In this document: positions 3 through 5,569 of the stretch, piece after piece
Layout: the number at the start of each line of letters is the position of its first letter
Numbering within the stretch: position 1 is the stretch's first letter
Source of the DNA: CAYFZR01 sp046760505 [NCBI: Candidatus Hydrothermarchaeota archaeon]
GTDB lineage: Archaea; CAYFZR01
Assembly: GCA_046760505.1 (NCBI GenBank)
Contig: JBHIEG010000065.1
Location: forward strand, 1 to 5,594
DNA: 5,594 bases
Direction of reading: 5' to 3'
Program-made: the position numbers and the translations under genes
The notes under the pieces: generated by a model
Seen by the model: the letters and a program-made list of their open reading frames with translations, nothing else
What the model was told of the DNA's origin: nothing
Database searches by the model: none

Positions 3-884
3 TTAACTGACCCTTCGAGTCGGGCGATGGTGAACAATCAGCGGATAGAGGTTTGTTATAATGTGCAATTCACAGTTGATAGTAATAAATTGATTCTGGA
101 TTATGAAGTAACGAATGATATCAAGGATGGAGAGCATTTAAGCGAGATGGGAAAAAGGGCAAAACAAATCCTTGAAGTGGAAGAGATAGAAGTATTGGCG
201 GACAAGGGATATTATAATTCAGAAGAGATAAAAGAATGTGTAGATAACGGGATTACGCCTTACATTCCTGAGCCTGAGAGAACAGTATCAAAAGAGATAG
301 ATATACCAAAGCCTGAGTTTTACAAGGGCAAATTTCAGTATAAAGAAGATAAGGATGTATATGTATGTCCTGAGGGAAAAGAATTAACCTATAGAAATAC
401 TGCGGTTCATCATAGAAAAAAGATGAGGATTTACAAAAGTAGAGAATGTTTAGATTGTCCGAAGATGAAATTTTGCACAAGGAATAAAAATGGGCGGATA
501 ATATATCGGTGGGAGCATGAGGAAGTTTTAGAAGAAATGAGAGAAAGGGTAAGAAGGGAAAAAGAGAAAGTGAAATTGCGGAATTTATTAACCGAGCACA
601 TATTTGGGACAATGAAGAGGAATTTTAATCAGGGCTATTTTCTTATGAGAGGGATTGATAAGGTTGGAGGGGAGATGGCATTGACGGTTCTTGCCTATAA
701 TATAAGGAGAGTTTTAAATATAATAGATCCAGATAGATTAATTGCTATTATGAGGGTAACATCTAAAAGGATATTTAATAATTTAGAAGATATTTTTACG
801 AATTTAAGACATATTCTTTTAAAATTTAGAGATTTGAGTTTTTGGTGGTTAAAAACTACCTATAGTGAGGGAGTGTATACCTAA
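3..884 (+). CDS. IS1182-like DDE transposase, N-terminus cut by window edge
   Basis: This is the C-terminal part of a cut-and-paste DDE transposase that acts on the ends of its own element. The frame is open to base 3 with in-frame residues LTDPSSRA before the first ATG at 27, so that ATG is internal and the true start lies upstream. Residues are counted from the ATG at 27. The family-typical TDP and YNVQ segments come first, then ADKGYY with the second catalytic Asp at D59. A cysteine cluster follows (C114, C141, C144, C150; CPEGK, then CLDCP and FC), and then TEHIFGTMKR with the catalytic Glu at E190. The tail has the usual LAYNIRRVLNII helix. This arrangement fits the IS1182 group and the DDE_Tnp_1_6 domain. 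The first catalytic Asp should be in the missing part. Assignment to IS1182 rather than a neighbouring IS4/IS5-type family is from memory of motifs. Confidence 0.88.
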   Translation, partial: LTDPSSRAMVNNQRIEVCYNVQFTVDSNKLILDYEVTNDIKDGEHLSEMGKRAKQILEVEEIEVLADKGYYNSEEIKECVDNGITPYIPEPERTVSKEIDIPKPEFYKGKFQYKEDKDVYVCPEGKELTYRNTAVHHRKKMRIYKSRECLDCPKMKFCTRNKNGRIIYRWEHEEVLEEMRERVRREKEKVKLRNLLTEHIFGTMKRNFNQGYFLMRGIDKVGGEMALTVLAYNIRRVLNIIDPDRLIAIMRVTSKRIFNNLEDIFTNLRHILLKFRDLSFWWLKTTYSEGVYT

Positions 885-911: not shown

Positions 912-921
912 GTTATGTGCC
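912..921 (+). other. cassette core site (R' type) at the 5' boundary
   Basis: GTTATGTGCC fits the integron core GTTRRRY except for T at the fifth base. The same deviation occurs in the downstream copy (GTTATATGCC, 1982-1991), so it may be the local integron's own variant. Recombination would be expected between the G and the first T. The bases immediately upstream belong to the IS end rather than to an attC arm. Confidence 0.68.
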
Positions 922-1982
922 ATAGTTCTACTTGTAGAAGTTAGGAGGCAACCAAACAATGAAGATTAGTCTTATCCAAGTACCATATCACTTAGGGCAG
1001 GGATGTGTCGGAGTGGGGATGGGACCGGTTCGTTACATGCAAGCTGGTGCGAATCGCAATTTGTTAGACCGAGGTTTTGAACTTAAGGTCGAGACTATTC
1101 AGTGCAACGATCGATTTGAAGATGAGCTGAGCGCGATTGTTGACATTGATACTCGTCTTGCAAGATGTGTCAAGGGCGCTATCACTAGTGGATACTTCCC
1201 ACTGGTACTCGGCGGGAATTGCAATACTTGTCTTGGCACACTTGCGGGTCTTGATTCCTATCAGATCGGGATCATCTGGTTTGATGCCCACGGTGACTTC
1301 AATACACCAGAAACAAGCCCTAGTGGTTTTTTTGACGGAATGTCACTGGCAATTGCAACTGGTCAGTGTTACAGAGAACTTTGGACACTAATTGAAAACA
1401 GCAGTCCTATCCCGGAGTCCTGTACTCTTCTTATTGGTGTGCGCGATCTAGATCCAAAAGAACGAGAGCATCTCGAACACTCCGAGATCCATGTAGTTGC
1501 TGCTGATGAACTGAAGAAAGCTGGACTGATGGCGAGTCTCCTTCCAAGGCTTACTGAGCTTCAATCACAAGTCCACGAGGTCTATCTCCATATTGACATT
1601 GATGTGCTCGATCCACAGGAAGCTCCTGGCGTTGATTTTAGGTGTCCAAACGGACTTTCTTCAAACGAGGTGGAGCAAGTGGTACAGATGATTACCGAAC
1701 GTTTCCGGATAAAGGCAGCAGCTCTTACCGCCTATGACCCTGATTACGATAAAGATGACAAGACACTTCAAATTGGTCTTCGTCTGTTGAATGTGATTGC
1801 AGATGAGGTAGCTAAATCAACTACAGCAAGGTACTAATCCACCTGGATTCAACGATCCGATACTGATATTTCCGAAGCTAGTTATTATTGAAAGGGCTAC
1901 GGCACATAACATGCGGTTGCCGGCTTCGGCCTTCGGCTTTCGCCCAAATCCCGACAAGTCGGACTTCGCCGACCGCCGCCCG
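913..1982 (+). mobile_element. integron gene cassette carrying an arginase-fold gene
   Basis: The unit runs from the T after the first core-site G (912/913) to the G of the next core site (1982). It holds one ORF starting 46 bases into the cassette, a short tail, and an attC at the 3' end, which is the standard cassette plan. The flanking 12-mers GTTATGTGCCAT (912-923) and GTTATATGCCAT (1982-1993) differ by one base, as successive cassette junctions should. The attC left outer box GGCACATAAC (1901-1910) is the exact reverse complement of 912-921, but has one mismatch with 1982-1991. In the excised circle, G1982 would join TTATGTGCC (913-921) and restore a perfect 10-bp outer stem, a known property of true cassettes. 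No integrase gene is visible. Confidence 0.8.
959..1837 (+). CDS. arginase/agmatinase-fold (ureohydrolase superfamily) protein with altered active site
   Basis: A 292-residue protein of normal length for ureohydrolases, which use two Mn ions to hydrolyse guanidino-type C-N bonds. Visible superfamily marks are GVGMGP (18-23), LGGNCN (84-89), [11 protein letters not shown] (107-117), SGFFDGM (122-128) and HIDIDVLDP (211-219). Metal ligands D109, H111, D113, D213 and D215 are kept. The usual GGDH motif reads GGNC, so the position of arginase His101 is Cys88. By alignment with human arginase I, His141 corresponds to D126, Asn139 to F124, and guanidinium-binding Glu277 to A258 (TAYDPDYD region). 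A normal arginase or agmatinase activity is therefore doubtful. It could act on another substrate or have lost catalysis. I recall similar GGNCN proteins annotated only as arginase family. The start at 959 follows AGGAGG (943-948) by ten bases. It is a cassette gene with no evident promoter, probably read from upstream. Shows no signal peptide, so it is probably cytoplasmic. Confidence 0.87.
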
Positions 1983-1991
1983 TTATATGCC
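1901..1991 (+). other. attC: attC recombination site (59-base-element type), 91 bp
   Basis: This is an imperfect palindrome with 24-base arms, 1901-1924 and 1968-1991, which pair at 18 of 24 positions without gaps. Outer boxes are GGCACATAAC (R'') and GTTATATGCC (R'). After a 2-base mismatched spacer (AT against GG) comes a GCGG/CCGC inner box, another 2-base mismatch, and then GC-rich pairing. This R-spacer-L layout is that of attC sites folded as single strands for IntI recombination. The 43-base middle contains a smaller palindrome CCGACAAGTCGG (1951-1962) and repeated CTTCGG units, giving a GC-rich branched terminal structure. The length is within the usual attC range. An unpaired extrahelical base is not obvious in this ungapped alignment, a weakness of the call. 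The hairpin might also weaken transcription between the two genes. A plain terminator is less likely, because there is no T-tract and the core boxes match. Confidence 0.82.
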
Positions 1992-2022: not shown

Positions 2023-2451
2023 ATGAAGGTCGATGAAAGTGTATGGAACTTTTTCCAAAAGCATTTGGGTTACACTGATGAAGAAATGAAGAAATTCAGA
2101 GAAAATCCGAGAAATGAAGATGTTCTTTCCAAGGGACCTGCATTAATGAACAAGACAATCGTTGTAGGGGTGGTGGAATCACATGGGTGTAATAGTCAGC
2201 ATAAGGTAGGTGATAAGTTCTATTTTGATGGTGCAGGCAACCTTATTACTAAACTTTGTCCGAAGAGAGTCTGTATCTACGCCTTGACTTCAGTGGCACC
2301 GTTAATTTTCACATCAAACGAGCTATTCTATGCAGGGGTTGATCCTAATAAGATGCGATTTAAGAGAGTCGGCTGCTTCGATGTAGGGGTGCAATGTGGC
2401 GGCTGGGGTCATATCGTCATGGAGATCAGAGTAGAAGATCGTAAGAAATAG
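2023..2451 (+). CDS. small conserved protein resembling the TIGR04076 group; possible second cassette gene
   Basis: A 142-residue soluble protein with no signal peptide or membrane segment. The N-terminus (about 1-43) is a charged helical segment containing LGYTDEEMKKF. The core reads VVESHGCNSQHKVGDKF (50-66), then FDGAGN (68-73), CPKRVC (79-84), NELFYAGVDP (99-108) and VGCFDVGVQCGGWGH (116-130), ending in a strand-like VMEIRVE. The GHKVGD-like element and the later cysteines recall proteins annotated as TIGR04076 family, whose function is unknown. Cys56, His60, Cys79, Cys84, Cys118 and Cys125 might bind a metal or form a redox centre, but this is inference. The ATG is set by AAGGAGG (2009-2015), seven bases upstream. 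The gene begins 41 bases after the core site at 1982, so it occupies the position of a cassette ORF, although no attC is found after it. It might be co-transcribed with the preceding gene. Confidence 0.78.
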   Translation: MKVDESVWNFFQKHLGYTDEEMKKFRENPRNEDVLSKGPALMNKTIVVGVVESHGCNSQHKVGDKFYFDGAGNLITKLCPKRVCIYALTSVAPLIFTSNELFYAGVDPNKMRFKRVGCFDVGVQCGGWGHIVMEIRVEDRKK

Positions 2452-2890
2452 TTGATCGGTTGAGTCACATCTTGCATTATTACATTTTGAACTTGAAACT
2501 GGTCACAGGTCCAGATTAGTTTCATTCGGCATAGTAATTAGGATCAAGTCTCAATTTTTGACAATTTAAGTTAAAGCATAGGCTACTTTTTATAAATTTG
2601 ACCAGCAAGAGAAAACCATTCATAAAATAAAATTTTTCAGTGAGTTTTACTCAAGCCATTGCTATATGTTTCTAGGCAGGGAATTGAAAAGAATGATAAG
2701 GAAATCAGGAAAAATTGCAAATTAGTGGAAAAAGCAAATCCCTAACTCCTTTAACCGGTGAATGGTGAATGTGAGATGGTCAACAAACAAGTGAATTTTA
2801 AAAAATTGGGAATTTTTAGAGAGTTTTTTTGTATATTATAGTGAGGAGGGTTTTCAAATGACCCTAACAAATAAAAGATATATAATAAAA
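2452..2890. other. non-coding AT-rich stretch
   Basis: I see no convincing gene, RNA or terminator here. A 7-bp AT palindrome (AAAAATT, GGG loop, AATTTTT; 2801-2817) and a TATATTATA run (2832-2840) precede GAGGAGG and an ATG at 2858, which opens only 24 codons before a stop inside the next repeat. A weak promoter-like region is possible but has no well-spaced -35 element. The stretch lies where the attC of the second ORF would be expected, but no clear site is present. Confidence 0.55.
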
Positions 2891-3094
2891 ATTCCAAATC
2901 ACAAATCCCAAATTACAAATAAGCTCCAATGACCAAAATCCCAATGACCCAAACAAAAAGAGCAGATAATTGCGGTTTAGAGGAACAAACTTATCAGTTT
3001 GCTAAAGAAGTACCTCTTTATAATTGTTTTGGTCATTTGGTCATTAGAATTTGGAATTTATTTGATATTTGGTGCTTGGAATTTGTGATTTTAA
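2891..3094. repeat. imperfect fold-back (inverted) repeat built of CAAAT/CCAAAT-type units
   Basis: The left arm (about 2896-2955) is rich in units such as AAATCACAAAT, CCCAAATTACAAATAA and CAATGACC. The right arm (about 3025-3091) is its imperfect reverse complement in collinear order. Exact inverted matches are 2896-2906 with 3081-3091 (11 nt), 2916-2922 with 3058-3064 (7 nt), and 2928-2937 with 3036-3045 (10 nt); the TGACC-CAAACA end at 2945-2955 matches 3025-3035 with one difference. About 70 bases separate the arms. An open frame across it (2929-3162) translates to low-information text and is not a gene. This is a dispersed non-coding repeat or a MITE-like fold-back. I recall similar repeats from uncultivated bacterial genomes but cannot verify this here. 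Confidence 0.72.
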
Positions 3095-3121
3095 CTTTTG
3101 AGAAGGTGAAGCTGAAAAATA

Positions 3122-3170
3122 GAGCAAGAAAACCCGCATCACAACTGGGTTTTCAAAGTTGAAAATGCTC
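3122..3170 (+). promoter_or_regulatory. nested hairpin in the leader of the VIT-vWA gene
   Basis: GAAAACCC (3128-3135) and GGGTTTTC (3147-3154) form a perfect 8-bp stem with an 11-base loop. An outer pair GAGCA (3122-3126) and TGCTC (3166-3170) can close around it. It ends 8 bases before the ribosome-binding site of the gene at 3189. It lacks a T-tract directly after the stem, so it is a poor intrinsic terminator. It may be a leader structure affecting translation or mRNA stability, or a leftover of the adjoining repeat. No known riboswitch is recognised. Confidence 0.35.
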
Positions 3171-3178
3171 GTGAAAAT

Positions 3179-3186
3179 AAGGAGGT
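3179..3186 (+). promoter_or_regulatory. strong ribosome-binding site deciding between two adjacent ATGs
   Basis: AAGGAGGT lies only two bases before the ATG at 3189 and five bases before the in-frame ATG at 3192. The second ATG has the more usual spacing and gives MKKL, a typical signal-peptide start, so translation may begin mainly at 3192. The difference is a single Met. Confidence 0.7.
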
Positions 3187-3188
3187 AA

Positions 3189-5462
3189 ATGATGAAAAAG
3201 TTAATAGCTTTACTATTCTTAACCATAATTACCTTTGTCCTTCAGCCAAAGGTAATTCAAGCTGCCCCACAGGGAGAGGAAGAAGATAAAACCCTCTCTC
3301 CTTACTTCTTTGTGCAGGGCGATCCCAAAGTAGACCATTTTCCCCTGCTTAAAACAGGGGCGAAGGTAAATATTGCCGGGATTACCGCTGAGGTAGAGCT
3401 TACCCAGGTATATAAGAATGATGGCAAGAGGACCATAGAGGCTGTCTATGTTTTCCCCTTAGGGACAAAATCTGCTATACATGCCATGAAGATGAAGATA
3501 GGTAACAGGATAATTGAGGCAAAGATTGAGGAGACGATAAAAGCACAGAAGATATACCAAAGGGCAAAAGATGAAGGTAAAGTGGCTTCCCTGCTGGAGC
3601 AGAAAAGGCCCAATGTATTCCAGATGAAAGTAGCCAACATAATGCCCGGTGATGTAGTAGAGGTGGCGGTGAGGTATACAGAGATTCTTGTTCCTGAGAA
3701 AGGGATATACGAATTTGTTTTCCCCACTGTGGTGGGTCCCCGGTTTACAGGTGAAAAGGATAAAGGAGAACTGAAAGGTAAAGACAGGTGGGTAGTCACT
3801 TCCTATCTTCATGAAGGAGAAAAACCTCCCTACAAATTTGATATAAAAGTAAATTTAAGGACAGGACTTCCCCTTTCCAGAGTATGGGTAACTTCTCATA
3901 AGGTAAAGATAAGCAAGCAGGGTAGGGATGGAGCAAAGATTCTGCTCTCTCCTAAGGAGGAAAAGGGAGGGAACAGAGATTTTATTCTGAGGTACACCTT
4001 ACAGGGTGATGCCATACATACCGGACTTCTTCTCTATCCGGGTGAAAAAGAGAAATTTTTCCTCTTAATGCTTGAGCCGCCGGAGAGGGTAAATATAAAC
4101 ATGGTTCCTCCCCGTGAGTATGTATTCATTGTGGATGTCTCTGGTTCCATGCATGGTTTTCCTTTAGAAGTCTCCAAAGCTTTAATAAAGAGGATAATAG
4201 GGAATTTAAGAGAGAAAGATTACTTCAATGTACTATTTTTTGCTGGCGGTTCAGAGGTTCTCTCTCTTCATCCCCTTCCCGCCACCGAGAAAAACAAAAA
4301 GAAGGCCATAGATATGGTCATGTCCAGGACAGGCGGAGGAGGAACCAGGATACTCGATGCTTTAAAAAGGGCCTTATCCTTAGAGAAAAAGGAGGGTTTA
4401 TCCCGCATCATTGTTACGGCGACTGACGGATATGTGGCGGTGGAGAAAGAAGTATTTGATCTTATGAGGGAAAACCTCGGCCAGGCAAACTTCTTTGCCT
4501 TTGGCATAGGAACAGGAGTAAACCGTTTTCTTATTGAAGGAATGGCTAGGGTAGGCAGGGGAGAGCCCTTTGTGGTAACCAATAAAGAAGAGGCAGAAAA
4601 GATGGCAGAAAAGTTTATGAATTACATAGAACATCCTCTTCTGACCGACATAGAGGTAGCATTTGAGGGATTTGATGCTTATGAGGTAGAGCCACTTTCC
4701 CTTCCTGACCTCTTTGCCGAGCGTCCCCTTATTCTTTTCGGCAAATACAAGAATGCATCTGGAAAGATCAAAGTAAAGGGTAAGACCGTATCGGGTGATT
4801 ATAAGAAAAAGATCGTGGTGACTTCATCAATGGAAGATAAAGATAATGTGGCTCTCAGATACCTCTGGGCCAGGGAGAAGATAGCCCGGCTCTCTGATTA
4901 TGGAAAGATAGGAATGAAAGTAAAAGAAGAAGTAACAAATCTGGGGTTAAAATACAATCTCATGACCGAATATACCTCTTTTGTGGCAGTAGATAAGTTA
5001 ATCAGGAAAACCGGGGAAGTAGTGACCGTAAAACAACCTTTGCCTCTCCCCGAAGGAGTAAGCGATTATGCAGTTGGTGGTAGTATAGCTCGAGCACCAA
5101 CCGCTTATCGGATGGTTGCTCCTAAAGTAGCAAGAGAAGAAGTACGCTTAGGTGAAGACAAAAATATCTCTCCTCAGATTTATGTAATTGGTGGGAAATT
5201 GCCTTCTGAAATAACTCTGGATGGTGTAGAAAAGATTATACTCCGCCAGATTAAAAAAGATTTGGAAGGAGTTTTCAAGACATGGCAGCTGAAGAGTCTG
5301 ACCATAGTGCTGGAGGTAGAAAAAGGGAAAGTTAAGGCGATTAAAATAAAAAAATATAAAGGTAAAGAATGTAAGAAAGAAATTCTGGAAAAGATATTCA
5401 AGAAGCTCCACTTTCCTGCTTCCCTCAAAGGTACCTGGGAACTGAACCTGGAGTATATTTAG
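3189..5462 (+). CDS. secreted VIT and von Willebrand factor A domain protein
   Basis: A 757-residue exported protein. Residues 1-25 form a signal peptide (MMKK, hydrophobic core, VIQA with likely cleavage before APQ). A VIT domain covers about 50-185 (AEVELTQVYKNDG, YVFPLG, IYQRAKDEGK, FQMKVANIMPGD). A vWA domain at about 308-465 has an intact MIDAS metal site: DVSGS (D316, S318, S320), T386 in GGGGTR and D413 in ATDGY. Then comes the conserved linker of this family (LWAREKIARL 559-568, LMTEYTSFVAVDK 591-603, PLPEGVSD 619-626). The last 100 residues or so form a separate alpha/beta-like domain resembling TonB/AgmX-type C-terminal domains, a tentative reading. Architecture matches ITIH-like bacterial VIT-vWA proteins, usually taken to mediate metal-dependent protein binding at the envelope. 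There is no C-terminal membrane helix, LPXTG or PEP-CTERM tail, so it is probably periplasmic or released. No sortase or MoxR partner is in the window, and partners are unknown. Confidence 0.92.
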   Translation: MMKKLIALLFLTIITFVLQPKVIQAAPQGEEEDKTLSPYFFVQGDPKVDHFPLLKTGAKVNIAGITAEVELTQVYKNDGKRTIEAVYVFPLGTKSAIHAMKMKIGNRIIEAKIEETIKAQKIYQRAKDEGKVASLLEQKRPNVFQMKVANIMPGDVVEVAVRYTEILVPEKGIYEFVFPTVVGPRFTGEKDKGELKGKDRWVVTSYLHEGEKPPYKFDIKVNLRTGLPLSRVWVTSHKVKISKQGRDGAKILLSPKEEKGGNRDFILRYTLQGDAIHTGLLLYPGEKEKFFLLMLEPPERVNINMVPPREYVFIVDVSGSMHGFPLEVSKALIKRIIGNLREKDYFNVLFFAGGSEVLSLHPLPATEKNKKKAIDMVMSRTGGGGTRILDALKRALSLEKKEGLSRIIVTATDGYVAVEKEVFDLMRENLGQANFFAFGIGTGVNRFLIEGMARVGRGEPFVVTNKEEAEKMAEKFMNYIEHPLLTDIEVAFEGFDAYEVEPLSLPDLFAERPLILFGKYKNASGKIKVKGKTVSGDYKKKIVVTSSMEDKDNVALRYLWAREKIARLSDYGKIGMKVKEEVTNLGLKYNLMTEYTSFVAVDKLIRKTGEVVTVKQPLPLPEGVSDYAVGGSIARAPTAYRMVAPKVAREEVRLGEDKNISPQIYVIGGKLPSEITLDGVEKIILRQIKKDLEGVFKTWQLKSLTIVLEVEKGKVKAIKIKKYKGKECKKEILEKIFKKLHFPASLKGTWELNLEYI

Positions 5463-5569
5463 AAAGGGGTCTTAGAGGTCAAATACAGTGATCAAAGTCA
5501 ATATGTTTCTCCAGCTAAGCAATTGAAAACTCCAGAATAAGTAGTGTCAAAAATAGCATGAAAGAATCA

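What the first reader, a model, noticed from the sequence alone, without database searches (positions are those of the whole stretch)
912..1991. Integron gene cassette with attC, no integrase in sight
Seen: core-like 12-mers at 912-923 and 1982-1993 differing at one base; one ORF between them; and a 91-base attC-like palindrome directly before the second core. The R'' box at 1901-1910 is the exact reverse complement of the core at the far end of the same unit (912-921), while its local partner at 1982-1991 has one mismatch. Established: in excised circular cassettes, R'' pairs with the R' reconstituted from the cassette's own 5' end. This long-range complementarity is hard to explain by an ordinary hairpin. 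Both cores share a T at the fifth base of GTTRRRY, which may mark a particular sedentary integron lineage.
Basis: partly seen in the sequence, partly recalled or inferred. Interest (0 to 1): 0.8.

Follow-up and report, generated by a model that had tools for sequence, protein, structure and literature searches.

The report
Integron cassette of an unusual lineage
This stretch holds a mobile gene cassette of an integron, a bacterial gene-collecting system, and related genomes suggest that it belongs to an unusual version whose integrase enzyme and docking sites both lack features thought to be needed.

Summary
Window 912-1991 is one gene cassette: core GTTATGTGCC, an arginase-family ORF, then an attC hairpin whose R'' is the exact complement of the cassette's own 5' core. 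A model of 22 canonical attCs misses it; a model built without it from eight related sites hits it at 38.3 bits. The window's chromosomal flank is closest to a MAG grouped with WOR-3/Stahlbacteria. In that phylum 47 of 147 genomes hold this attC family at E<=1e-4. Over 35 neighbouring sites, R'' matches the core at the far end of its own unit (4.09 of 6) better than its local partner (2.77; random 2.93). Eleven of 13 genomes with a related integrase carry the sites. That integrase is XerA-like, lacks the roughly 41-residue insert of IntI and branches outside the IntI clade. The attCs have a 1-versus-5-nucleotide asymmetric spacer and mostly no extrahelical base. An attI-like motif follows most of the integrase genes. 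Recombination was not tested.

The parts
3..884 (+). C-terminal part of an IS1182-family transposase, cut by the window start; lies where an attI or earlier attC would be expected
   Evidence: NF033551 E 3.7e-59, profile 249-487 of 488, 200.9 bits, below its cut-off of 270
912..921 (+). 5' core (R') of the cassette, GTTATGTGCC
   Evidence: read by eye, 881-911 (printed) shows no attI-like motif; a 23-nt match of 869-891 to the L046 attI region has E 0.27 and overlaps the transposase end
959..1837 (+). Cassette ORF, arginase/ureohydrolase family, RBS-like GGAGG upstream
   Evidence: (PF00491 E 2.1e-41)
1901..1910 (+). R'' box, exact reverse complement of 912-921
1904..1988 (+). attC of the WOR-3-type family
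   Evidence: model R2, built without it, 38.3 bits, E 2.7e-9; next best in the window 6.3 bits
1911..1912 (+). Left spacer (1 nt in most of the family; here A plus a T opposite C)
1913..1922 (+). L'' arm GCGGTTGCCG
1938..1950 (+). Conserved inner sequence TTTCGCCCAAATC (family mostly TTCGYCCAAATY)
1951..1962 (+). Inner hairpin CCGA-CAAG-TCGG
   Evidence: read; position agrees with helix 3
1967..1976 (+). L' arm CGCCGACCGC
1977..1981 (+). Right spacer, 5 nt
1982..1991 (+). R' core GTTATATGCC: end of this cassette's attC and 5' core of the next unit
2023..2451 (+). ORF of the next unit (weak TIGR04076 match, below cut-off); no second attC found after it
   Evidence: homologue at 75% DNA identity in a non-cassette setting, L080 911-1351
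2843..3172 (.). MITE-like insertion, absent at the homologous place in L015
   Evidence: L015 9930-9971 matches 2801-2842 and L015 9973 onward matches 3173-5463, one base between; inverted repeats; similar stretches elsewhere
3189..5462 (+). VIT/vWA gene, chromosomal flank that places the host
   Evidence: 84% DNA identity to L015

Best explanation
912-1981 is a mobile gene cassette carrying an arginase-family gene, left in a chromosomal integron array of a WOR-3/Stahlbacteria-type bacterium. Its attC, read as a folded bottom strand, would be cut at G^TT by a tyrosine recombinase; excision would join the cassette's own 5' core to its attC stem, which is why R'' fits the far core better than the near one. 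Re-insertion would occur at an attI that in relatives lies directly after the integrase stop codon, giving integrase-attI-cassettes in one orientation. The enzyme of this lineage is XerA-like without the IntI-specific insert, and its attCs have a 1-versus-5 spacer and mostly no extrahelical base. Shown by sequence: attC family, covariation, own-core match, arrays, linkage, attI motif, one cassette shared at two integrases. Inferred: catalysis, strand choice, single-strand substrate, excision. In the window an IS1182-type gene stands upstream, and no integrase is visible.
For: Model R2 from 8 sites without the window hits it at 38.3 bits and gives 0 hits at E<=1 in 403 kb of other loci. L helix: 8 of 11 pairs change on both sides in the 8 sites, 11 of 11 in 58 sites, an alignment fitted to the model that includes 4 training sites and the window. 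Own-core match 4.09 versus local 2.77 of 6 in 35 pairs, 0 of 5000 random draws as high; Wilcoxon 0.0006. R2 sites at E<=1e-4 in 47 of 147 genomes; 11 of 13 integrase genomes carry them, P 7e-5, or 8 of 10 with the training genomes left out, P 6e-4. In 5 of 13 genomes the integrase lies within 3 kb of a site, co-oriented, with sites on its 3' side. attI motif (TATRAACGA-GTT with variants) in 10 of 14 integrase loci. The same cassette follows two different integrases: 109 of 111 bases identical from GTT, 26 of 100 before. Decayed attI region, 59 nt at 85%, about 2.7 kb before the VIT gene of the relative.
Against: The window holds one attC, no integrase and no recognisable attI. The canonical model does not report it. 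In the window the local partner is only one base worse than the far core (5 against 6 of 6). When I looked upstream of 9 sites for their own core, 3 (window, L046, L137) had a run of 9-10 bases; the other 6 had 3-7, within the 684-1505 nt of upstream sequence held for them. Two of the 8 training sites (L134, L135) have a decayed R'. R2 does not report the L047 sites that the canonical model finds weakly, and three canonical-type sites lie in L178 and L186, so two site types coexist in the phylum. 36 of the 47 site-bearing genomes showed no integrase at E<=1e-50, G126 has the integrase without sites, and G124's integrase is about 319 kb from its site. No recombination was observed.
Confidence: 0.85

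Rival explanations
1. An ordinary IntI-type integron cassette (CALIN fragment) with a somewhat divergent attC; any standard IntI moved it, and the XerA-like enzymes nearby have another job.
For: Standard IntIs are common in another phylum (84 of 247 genomes). Canonical-type attCs occur in L178, L186 and L047. Published work says cassettes in CALINs can be excised or captured by IntIs from elsewhere (PMC9668308, passages).
Against: 0 of 147 genomes of the host phylum have TIGR02249 at E<=1e-45 (its built-in control did not ring, but the same family was found in 84 of 247 genomes). The XerA-like gene is linked to these arrays and to an attI motif. 58 of 58 sites have a right spacer longer than the left (alignment fitted to R2).
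Confidence: 0.12
2. A REP-like or MITE-like palindromic repeat, or a terminator, that by chance resembles an attC.
For: It is a GC-rich hairpin after a stop codon; MITE-like repeats do occur nearby (window 2843-3172).
Against: The stem arms covary while the outer R bases follow the far core, not the local partner; a REP hairpin has no reason to do so. GTTATRTGCC itself is at about chance level in G013 (11 hits, 1 in an attC), so the core is not a dispersed repeat there.
Confidence: 0.02
3. A fossil: the cassette was once mobile but is now frozen, since the window shows no integrase and the nearest relative keeps only integrase remnants. This concerns present activity, not identity, and is compatible with the best explanation.
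For: G013 showed only fragments (L046 9774-10202; one in L047 with a stop) and a decayed attI near the VIT gene. The second unit in the window has no attC.
Against: The window's own hairpin keeps its R and L boxes, and long integrase ORFs exist elsewhere in the phylum.
Confidence: 0.5

Closest known systems
Sedentary chromosomal integrons and CALINs (IntI/attC/attI)
   Same: Cassettes bounded by GTT cores, R''/R' and L''/L' hairpins, short leader with RBS, tyrosine recombinase, attI-like site, arrays, R'' matching the cassette's own core
   Different: Relatives' integrase lacks the IntI insert and scores below the TIGR02249 cut-off; attC mostly lacks an extrahelical base and has a 1-versus-5 spacer (canonical here: 5 left in 21 of 22, extra base in 22 of 22); integrase and array co-oriented with attI after the stop codon; some units hold two or three ORFs
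XerA/XerC/XerD recombinases (NF040815, PDB 4a8e, 5hxy)
   Same: NF040815 above its cut-off in 3 of 3 enzymes with a whole catalytic part; solved relatives 4a8e and 5hxy, though the best solved match is IntI4, 2a3v
   Different: Linked to arrays and attI, two of the three carry a HARP-like N-terminal extension in frame (third: other frame), and they group with IntI rather than with the Xer rows (no archaeal XerA row was in that tree)
Archaeal integrons (PMC9668308)
   Same: Integrons in uncultured MAGs, mostly CALINs
   Different: Those were called by IntI genes and clusters of attCs; the host here is a bacterial candidate phylum (passages only)
Taxon-specific attC models (PMC8352920)
   Same: Shows that attC families track taxa, built as covariance models
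   Different: Eleven taxa: six gammaproteobacterial orders and five phyla, WOR-3 not among them (passages only)

Membership tests
Integron gene cassette | ORF unit bounded by GTT cores with an attC hairpin at its 3' end | tested here: met
Integron gene cassette | R'' complementary to the cassette's own 5' core (circle logic) | tested here: met
   window 10 of 10; 35 array pairs 4.09 versus 2.77 of 6; against it, 6 of 9 single sites showed no long own-core run upstream
Integron gene cassette | Cassette found inserted at attI | tested here: inconclusive
   not seen for the window's cassette; seen for another cassette of the family in L046 and L199 (the L199 attI fits the motif only partly)
Canonical attC | Match to a canonical attC covariance model | tested here: not met
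   R1, 22 sites, filters off, E up to 10
Canonical attC | Extrahelical bases in the folded bottom strand | tested here: not met
   window row shows none in the L helix; 54 of 58 sites have no inserted base in the left L arm (alignment fitted to R2)
IntI integrase (TIGR02249) | Score over the curated cut-off | tested here: not met
   218-228 bits against 265 in three relatives; none in the window
IntI integrase (TIGR02249) | Insert within the catalytic domain | tested here: not met
   relatives only: alignment A7; 59 residues between motifs in 4 measured, 100 in 22 of 22 measured IntIs
Complete integron | Integrase and attI beside the array | tested here: not met
   not met in the window; met in relatives
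CALIN as IntegronFinder 2 reports it | At least two attC sites without integrase | tested here: not met
   one attC in the window; definition from PMC9024848, passages
Integron, either form | Recombination activity | not testable with these tools
   needs a bench assay

The most novel reading that the evidence does not exclude
The WOR-3/Stahlbacteria phylum carries a separate class of integron: a XerA-like integrase that never had, or has lost, the IntI insert recombines attC hairpins that lack the extrahelical bases which that insert reads, using an asymmetric 1-versus-5 internal loop for strand polarity, with attI placed after the integrase. Because these enzymes branch beside the IntI clade, the class could be a sister or ancestral form of integrons.
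Probability: 0.6. Interest if true: 0.92.

Novelty: new variant of a known kind. Interest (0 to 1): 0.85.

Why it matters
The integrase insert is described as not fully conserved but essential for integron function (PMC8138268, passage), and residues in or near it contact the two extrahelical bases of attC (PMC3053210, abstract and passages). Here enzyme and site lack both together. That would give a natural test of how folded attCs are recognised and how integrons arose from Xer-type recombinases. It also suggests that searches with IntI and canonical attC models alone could overlook an integron-like system that shows in about a third of the genomes sampled in one candidate phylum.

Tried and rejected
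Canonical attC model (R1) as a stand-in for IntegronFinder: misses the window and L046, finds L047 at 20-21.5 bits. Reported as a negative; its sensitivity outside its training genomes is unknown. My first set of canonical sites was in the wrong orientation (A2); corrected after reading the start codons; A2 was not used for a model.

GTTATRTGCC as a genome-wide marker: 11 hits in G013, one in an attC, about chance. Single gapped attC pattern in viral contigs: one hit, L001, beside a methyltransferase ORF, not a canonical attC; a similar pattern hit 0 of 19 genomes. Viral hits L129 and L130 of the attC arm lie within long ORFs. BLAST of the window attC: no match in phages; two weak plasmid hits, one read and rejected, the other not read; the two hits were not examined. 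Of the 7 genomes hit by the arm pattern (G080, G141, G148, G154) lie outside attCs on inspection. L139-L142 and the viral integrase relatives L207, L208 were not examined. Viral scans with the transposase and the two cassette ORFs found no relative.

IS1182 boundary: 4 of 77 genomes hit, 31-32% identity; best 45% in plasmids, so the IS end could not be placed. Paper searches on IS1182 with attC or palindromes, and on IS1111 with attC, gave nothing usable (listings, and passages of one paper). Structure prediction was not run. The motif-distance script misread four of nine new integrases (125 or 134, from an earlier KD motif) and gave no value for L204, 5 IntI and 13 Xer rows; only the clean values are cited, and A7 is the main evidence.

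Absence from print rests on: integron+WOR-3, 0 papers; integron+Stahlbacteria, 0; integron+XerA+attC, 1 paper, passages seen, nothing on arrays; integron-like+patch and others, 25 papers, listing of 15 seen. Open-licence papers only.

Full report
Observation. The 10-nt match between the cassette's start and R'' is reached in 50 of 20000 random draws. The bottom strand folds better than the top. No Rfam family reaches its gathering score.

Host. No whole genome is held for the window. Among 20 loci found with the VIT/vWA protein of 3189-5462, the best is L015, MAG CSMAG_2763 (82% protein; 84% DNA). L015 lies in genome G013. The phylum that the tool assigns to G013 includes G002-G005, G007, G009 and G015, whose records are named Stahlbacteria or WOR-3. 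NCBI now writes Candidatus Stahliibacteriota. Placement rests on one gene and a 42-nt stretch of its 5' flank.

From the relative back to the site. G013 carries integrase remnants followed by cassette-like units. One of them, L046 10964-11043, shares the arm AACAYGSGGTTGYCGRCTTCG with the window. That arm, and a BLAST of a third copy, led to sites in G059, G118, G054, G049, G122, G041 and G031; those of G054 and G049 have a decayed R'. Aligned with these, the window fits along its length.

The attC family. Model R2 was built from the eight relatives only. On the window it gives 38.3 bits, E 2.7e-9, against 6.3 for the next best. Over 147 genomes of the phylum, 67 have a hit at E<=1 and 47 have a best hit at E<=1e-4 (counted from the rows, where at most 31 candidates a genome were scored, with strict filters; E-values are per genome, so E<=1 includes chance hits). 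R2 gives 0 hits at E<=1 in 403 kb of integron and other loci. In the eight sites the L helix is 93% paired and 8 of 11 pairs change on both sides; in the R helix mainly the four core pairs are kept. In 58 sites, found in 21 of 23 sources searched, 11 of 11 L pairs change on both sides; that alignment leans towards the model and includes 4 training sites and the window.

Cassette logic. If units move as circles, R'' should match the core at the other end of its own unit and need not match its neighbour. For 35 adjacent same-strand pairs under 4 kb apart, the match over six variable positions is 4.09 for the own core, 2.77 for the local partner and 2.93 for random cores; 0 of 5000 random draws reach the own value and 79% reach the local one. 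Own is better in 25 pairs, worse in 5, equal in 5. Seven pairs are perfect for own and none for local. Pairs that fail, such as in L183, L173 and L186, are included. The window scores 6 of 6 own, 5 of 6 local. A looser look upstream of 9 single sites found a long own-core run in 3: window 10, L046 9, L137 10 bases.

The integrase. A search with the G053 enzyme finds 13 of 147 genomes at E<=1e-50, 14 places. Eleven of the 13 have R2 sites at E<=1e-4 against 47 of 147 (P 7e-5); leaving out the eight training genomes, 8 of 10 against 39 of 139 (P 6e-4). G126 has no site and the best site of G074 is at 2e-4. In G053, G064, G153, G118 and G027 integrase and sites lie within 3 kb, co-oriented, with sites on the 3' side of the gene; in G053 a further site lies just before it. 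Some of the 14 places hold stop codons or partial genes. Three enzymes score over the cut-off of NF040815 (XerA-like) and below that of integron integrases. They lack the stretch that IntIs carry between the KDR and HxLRHS motifs; clean measurements give 59 residues in four new enzymes against 100 in 22 of 22 measured IntIs. In a tree of 50 rows (48 different) the 27 IntIs form one clade (100/100); the new enzymes fall outside it but on its side of a 100/100 split from the Xer rows. They do not form one clade; L204 joins the IntIs with weaker support on a long branch. L202 and L204, the two places with the lowest identity (46% and 42%), have no linked array or attI motif.

attI and traffic. 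After the integrase, 10 of 14 integrase loci show TATRAACGA-GTT or a near variant, preceded, read by eye, by imperfect dyads; L195 and L200 look identical there, so nine are distinct. The remnant in L046 has it too, and a second copy stands on its other strand. G013 and G074 carry the same cassette after their integrase: 109 of 111 bases agree from GTT onward, 26 of 100 before it (the G074 site fits the motif only partly). L015 keeps a decayed copy of the attI region, 59 nt at 85%, about 2.7 kb before the VIT gene, so the window's array probably sits at the same chromosomal place.

Site and enzyme together. In 58 of 58 sites the right spacer is longer than the left; it is 1 nt left in 57 and 5 nt right in 52; 54 have no extra base in the left L arm and 56 none in the right (alignment fitted to R2). 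The 22 canonical sites have 5 nt left in 21 and the extra base in 22. Published work assigns extrahelical-base contacts to the alpha-I2 helix and to beta-4,5 residues and calls the insert not fully conserved but essential. That both are missing here suggests co-evolution; this is inference.

Limits. The window itself holds one attC, no integrase, no recognisable attI; the canonical model misses it; the second unit has no attC; the upstream end runs into an IS1182-type gene whose border I could not place. Activity is untested. MAG contigs can be misbinned, though 47 genomes make that an unlikely source of the pattern.

Noticed in passing
window:2843-3172: MITE-like insertion between the array and the VIT gene, absent in L015; stretches similar to 2876-3099 (AAATTCCAAATCACAAAT type) occur in 17 of 77 genomes searched (three candidates a genome scored).
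   Followed up: partly
window:3-911: An IS1182-family transposase ORF ends about 27 nt before the cassette core, where attI or an attC stem should be; it may have inserted into the array. The IS end could not be placed.
   Followed up: partly
L173:1766-10972: The G053 array carries type II methyltransferases, a type II restriction enzyme and PDC-M57A/M57B candidate defence genes, with up to three ORFs per unit.
   Followed up: partly
L173:9799-10851; L175:5785-6942: These integrases carry an N-terminal extension that looks HARP-like (PF07443 E 0.023 in L173 only, below cut-off); in L174 a similar stretch lies in another reading frame (6992-7288).
   Followed up: partly
L001:2341-3074: Viral contig with a methyltransferase ORF flanked by inverted CCGTTATGTGC / GCACATAACGG repeats.
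   Followed up: no
L178:5443-5509; L186:1134-1206, 2028-2151; L047:514-568, 1281-1408: Canonical-type attCs in the same phylum; L178 and L186 also hold the new type.
   Followed up: no
L080:418-1364: Two tandem homologues of the window's second ORF a little upstream of what look like nuo genes in a Deltaproteobacteria MAG, not in a cassette.
   Followed up: no
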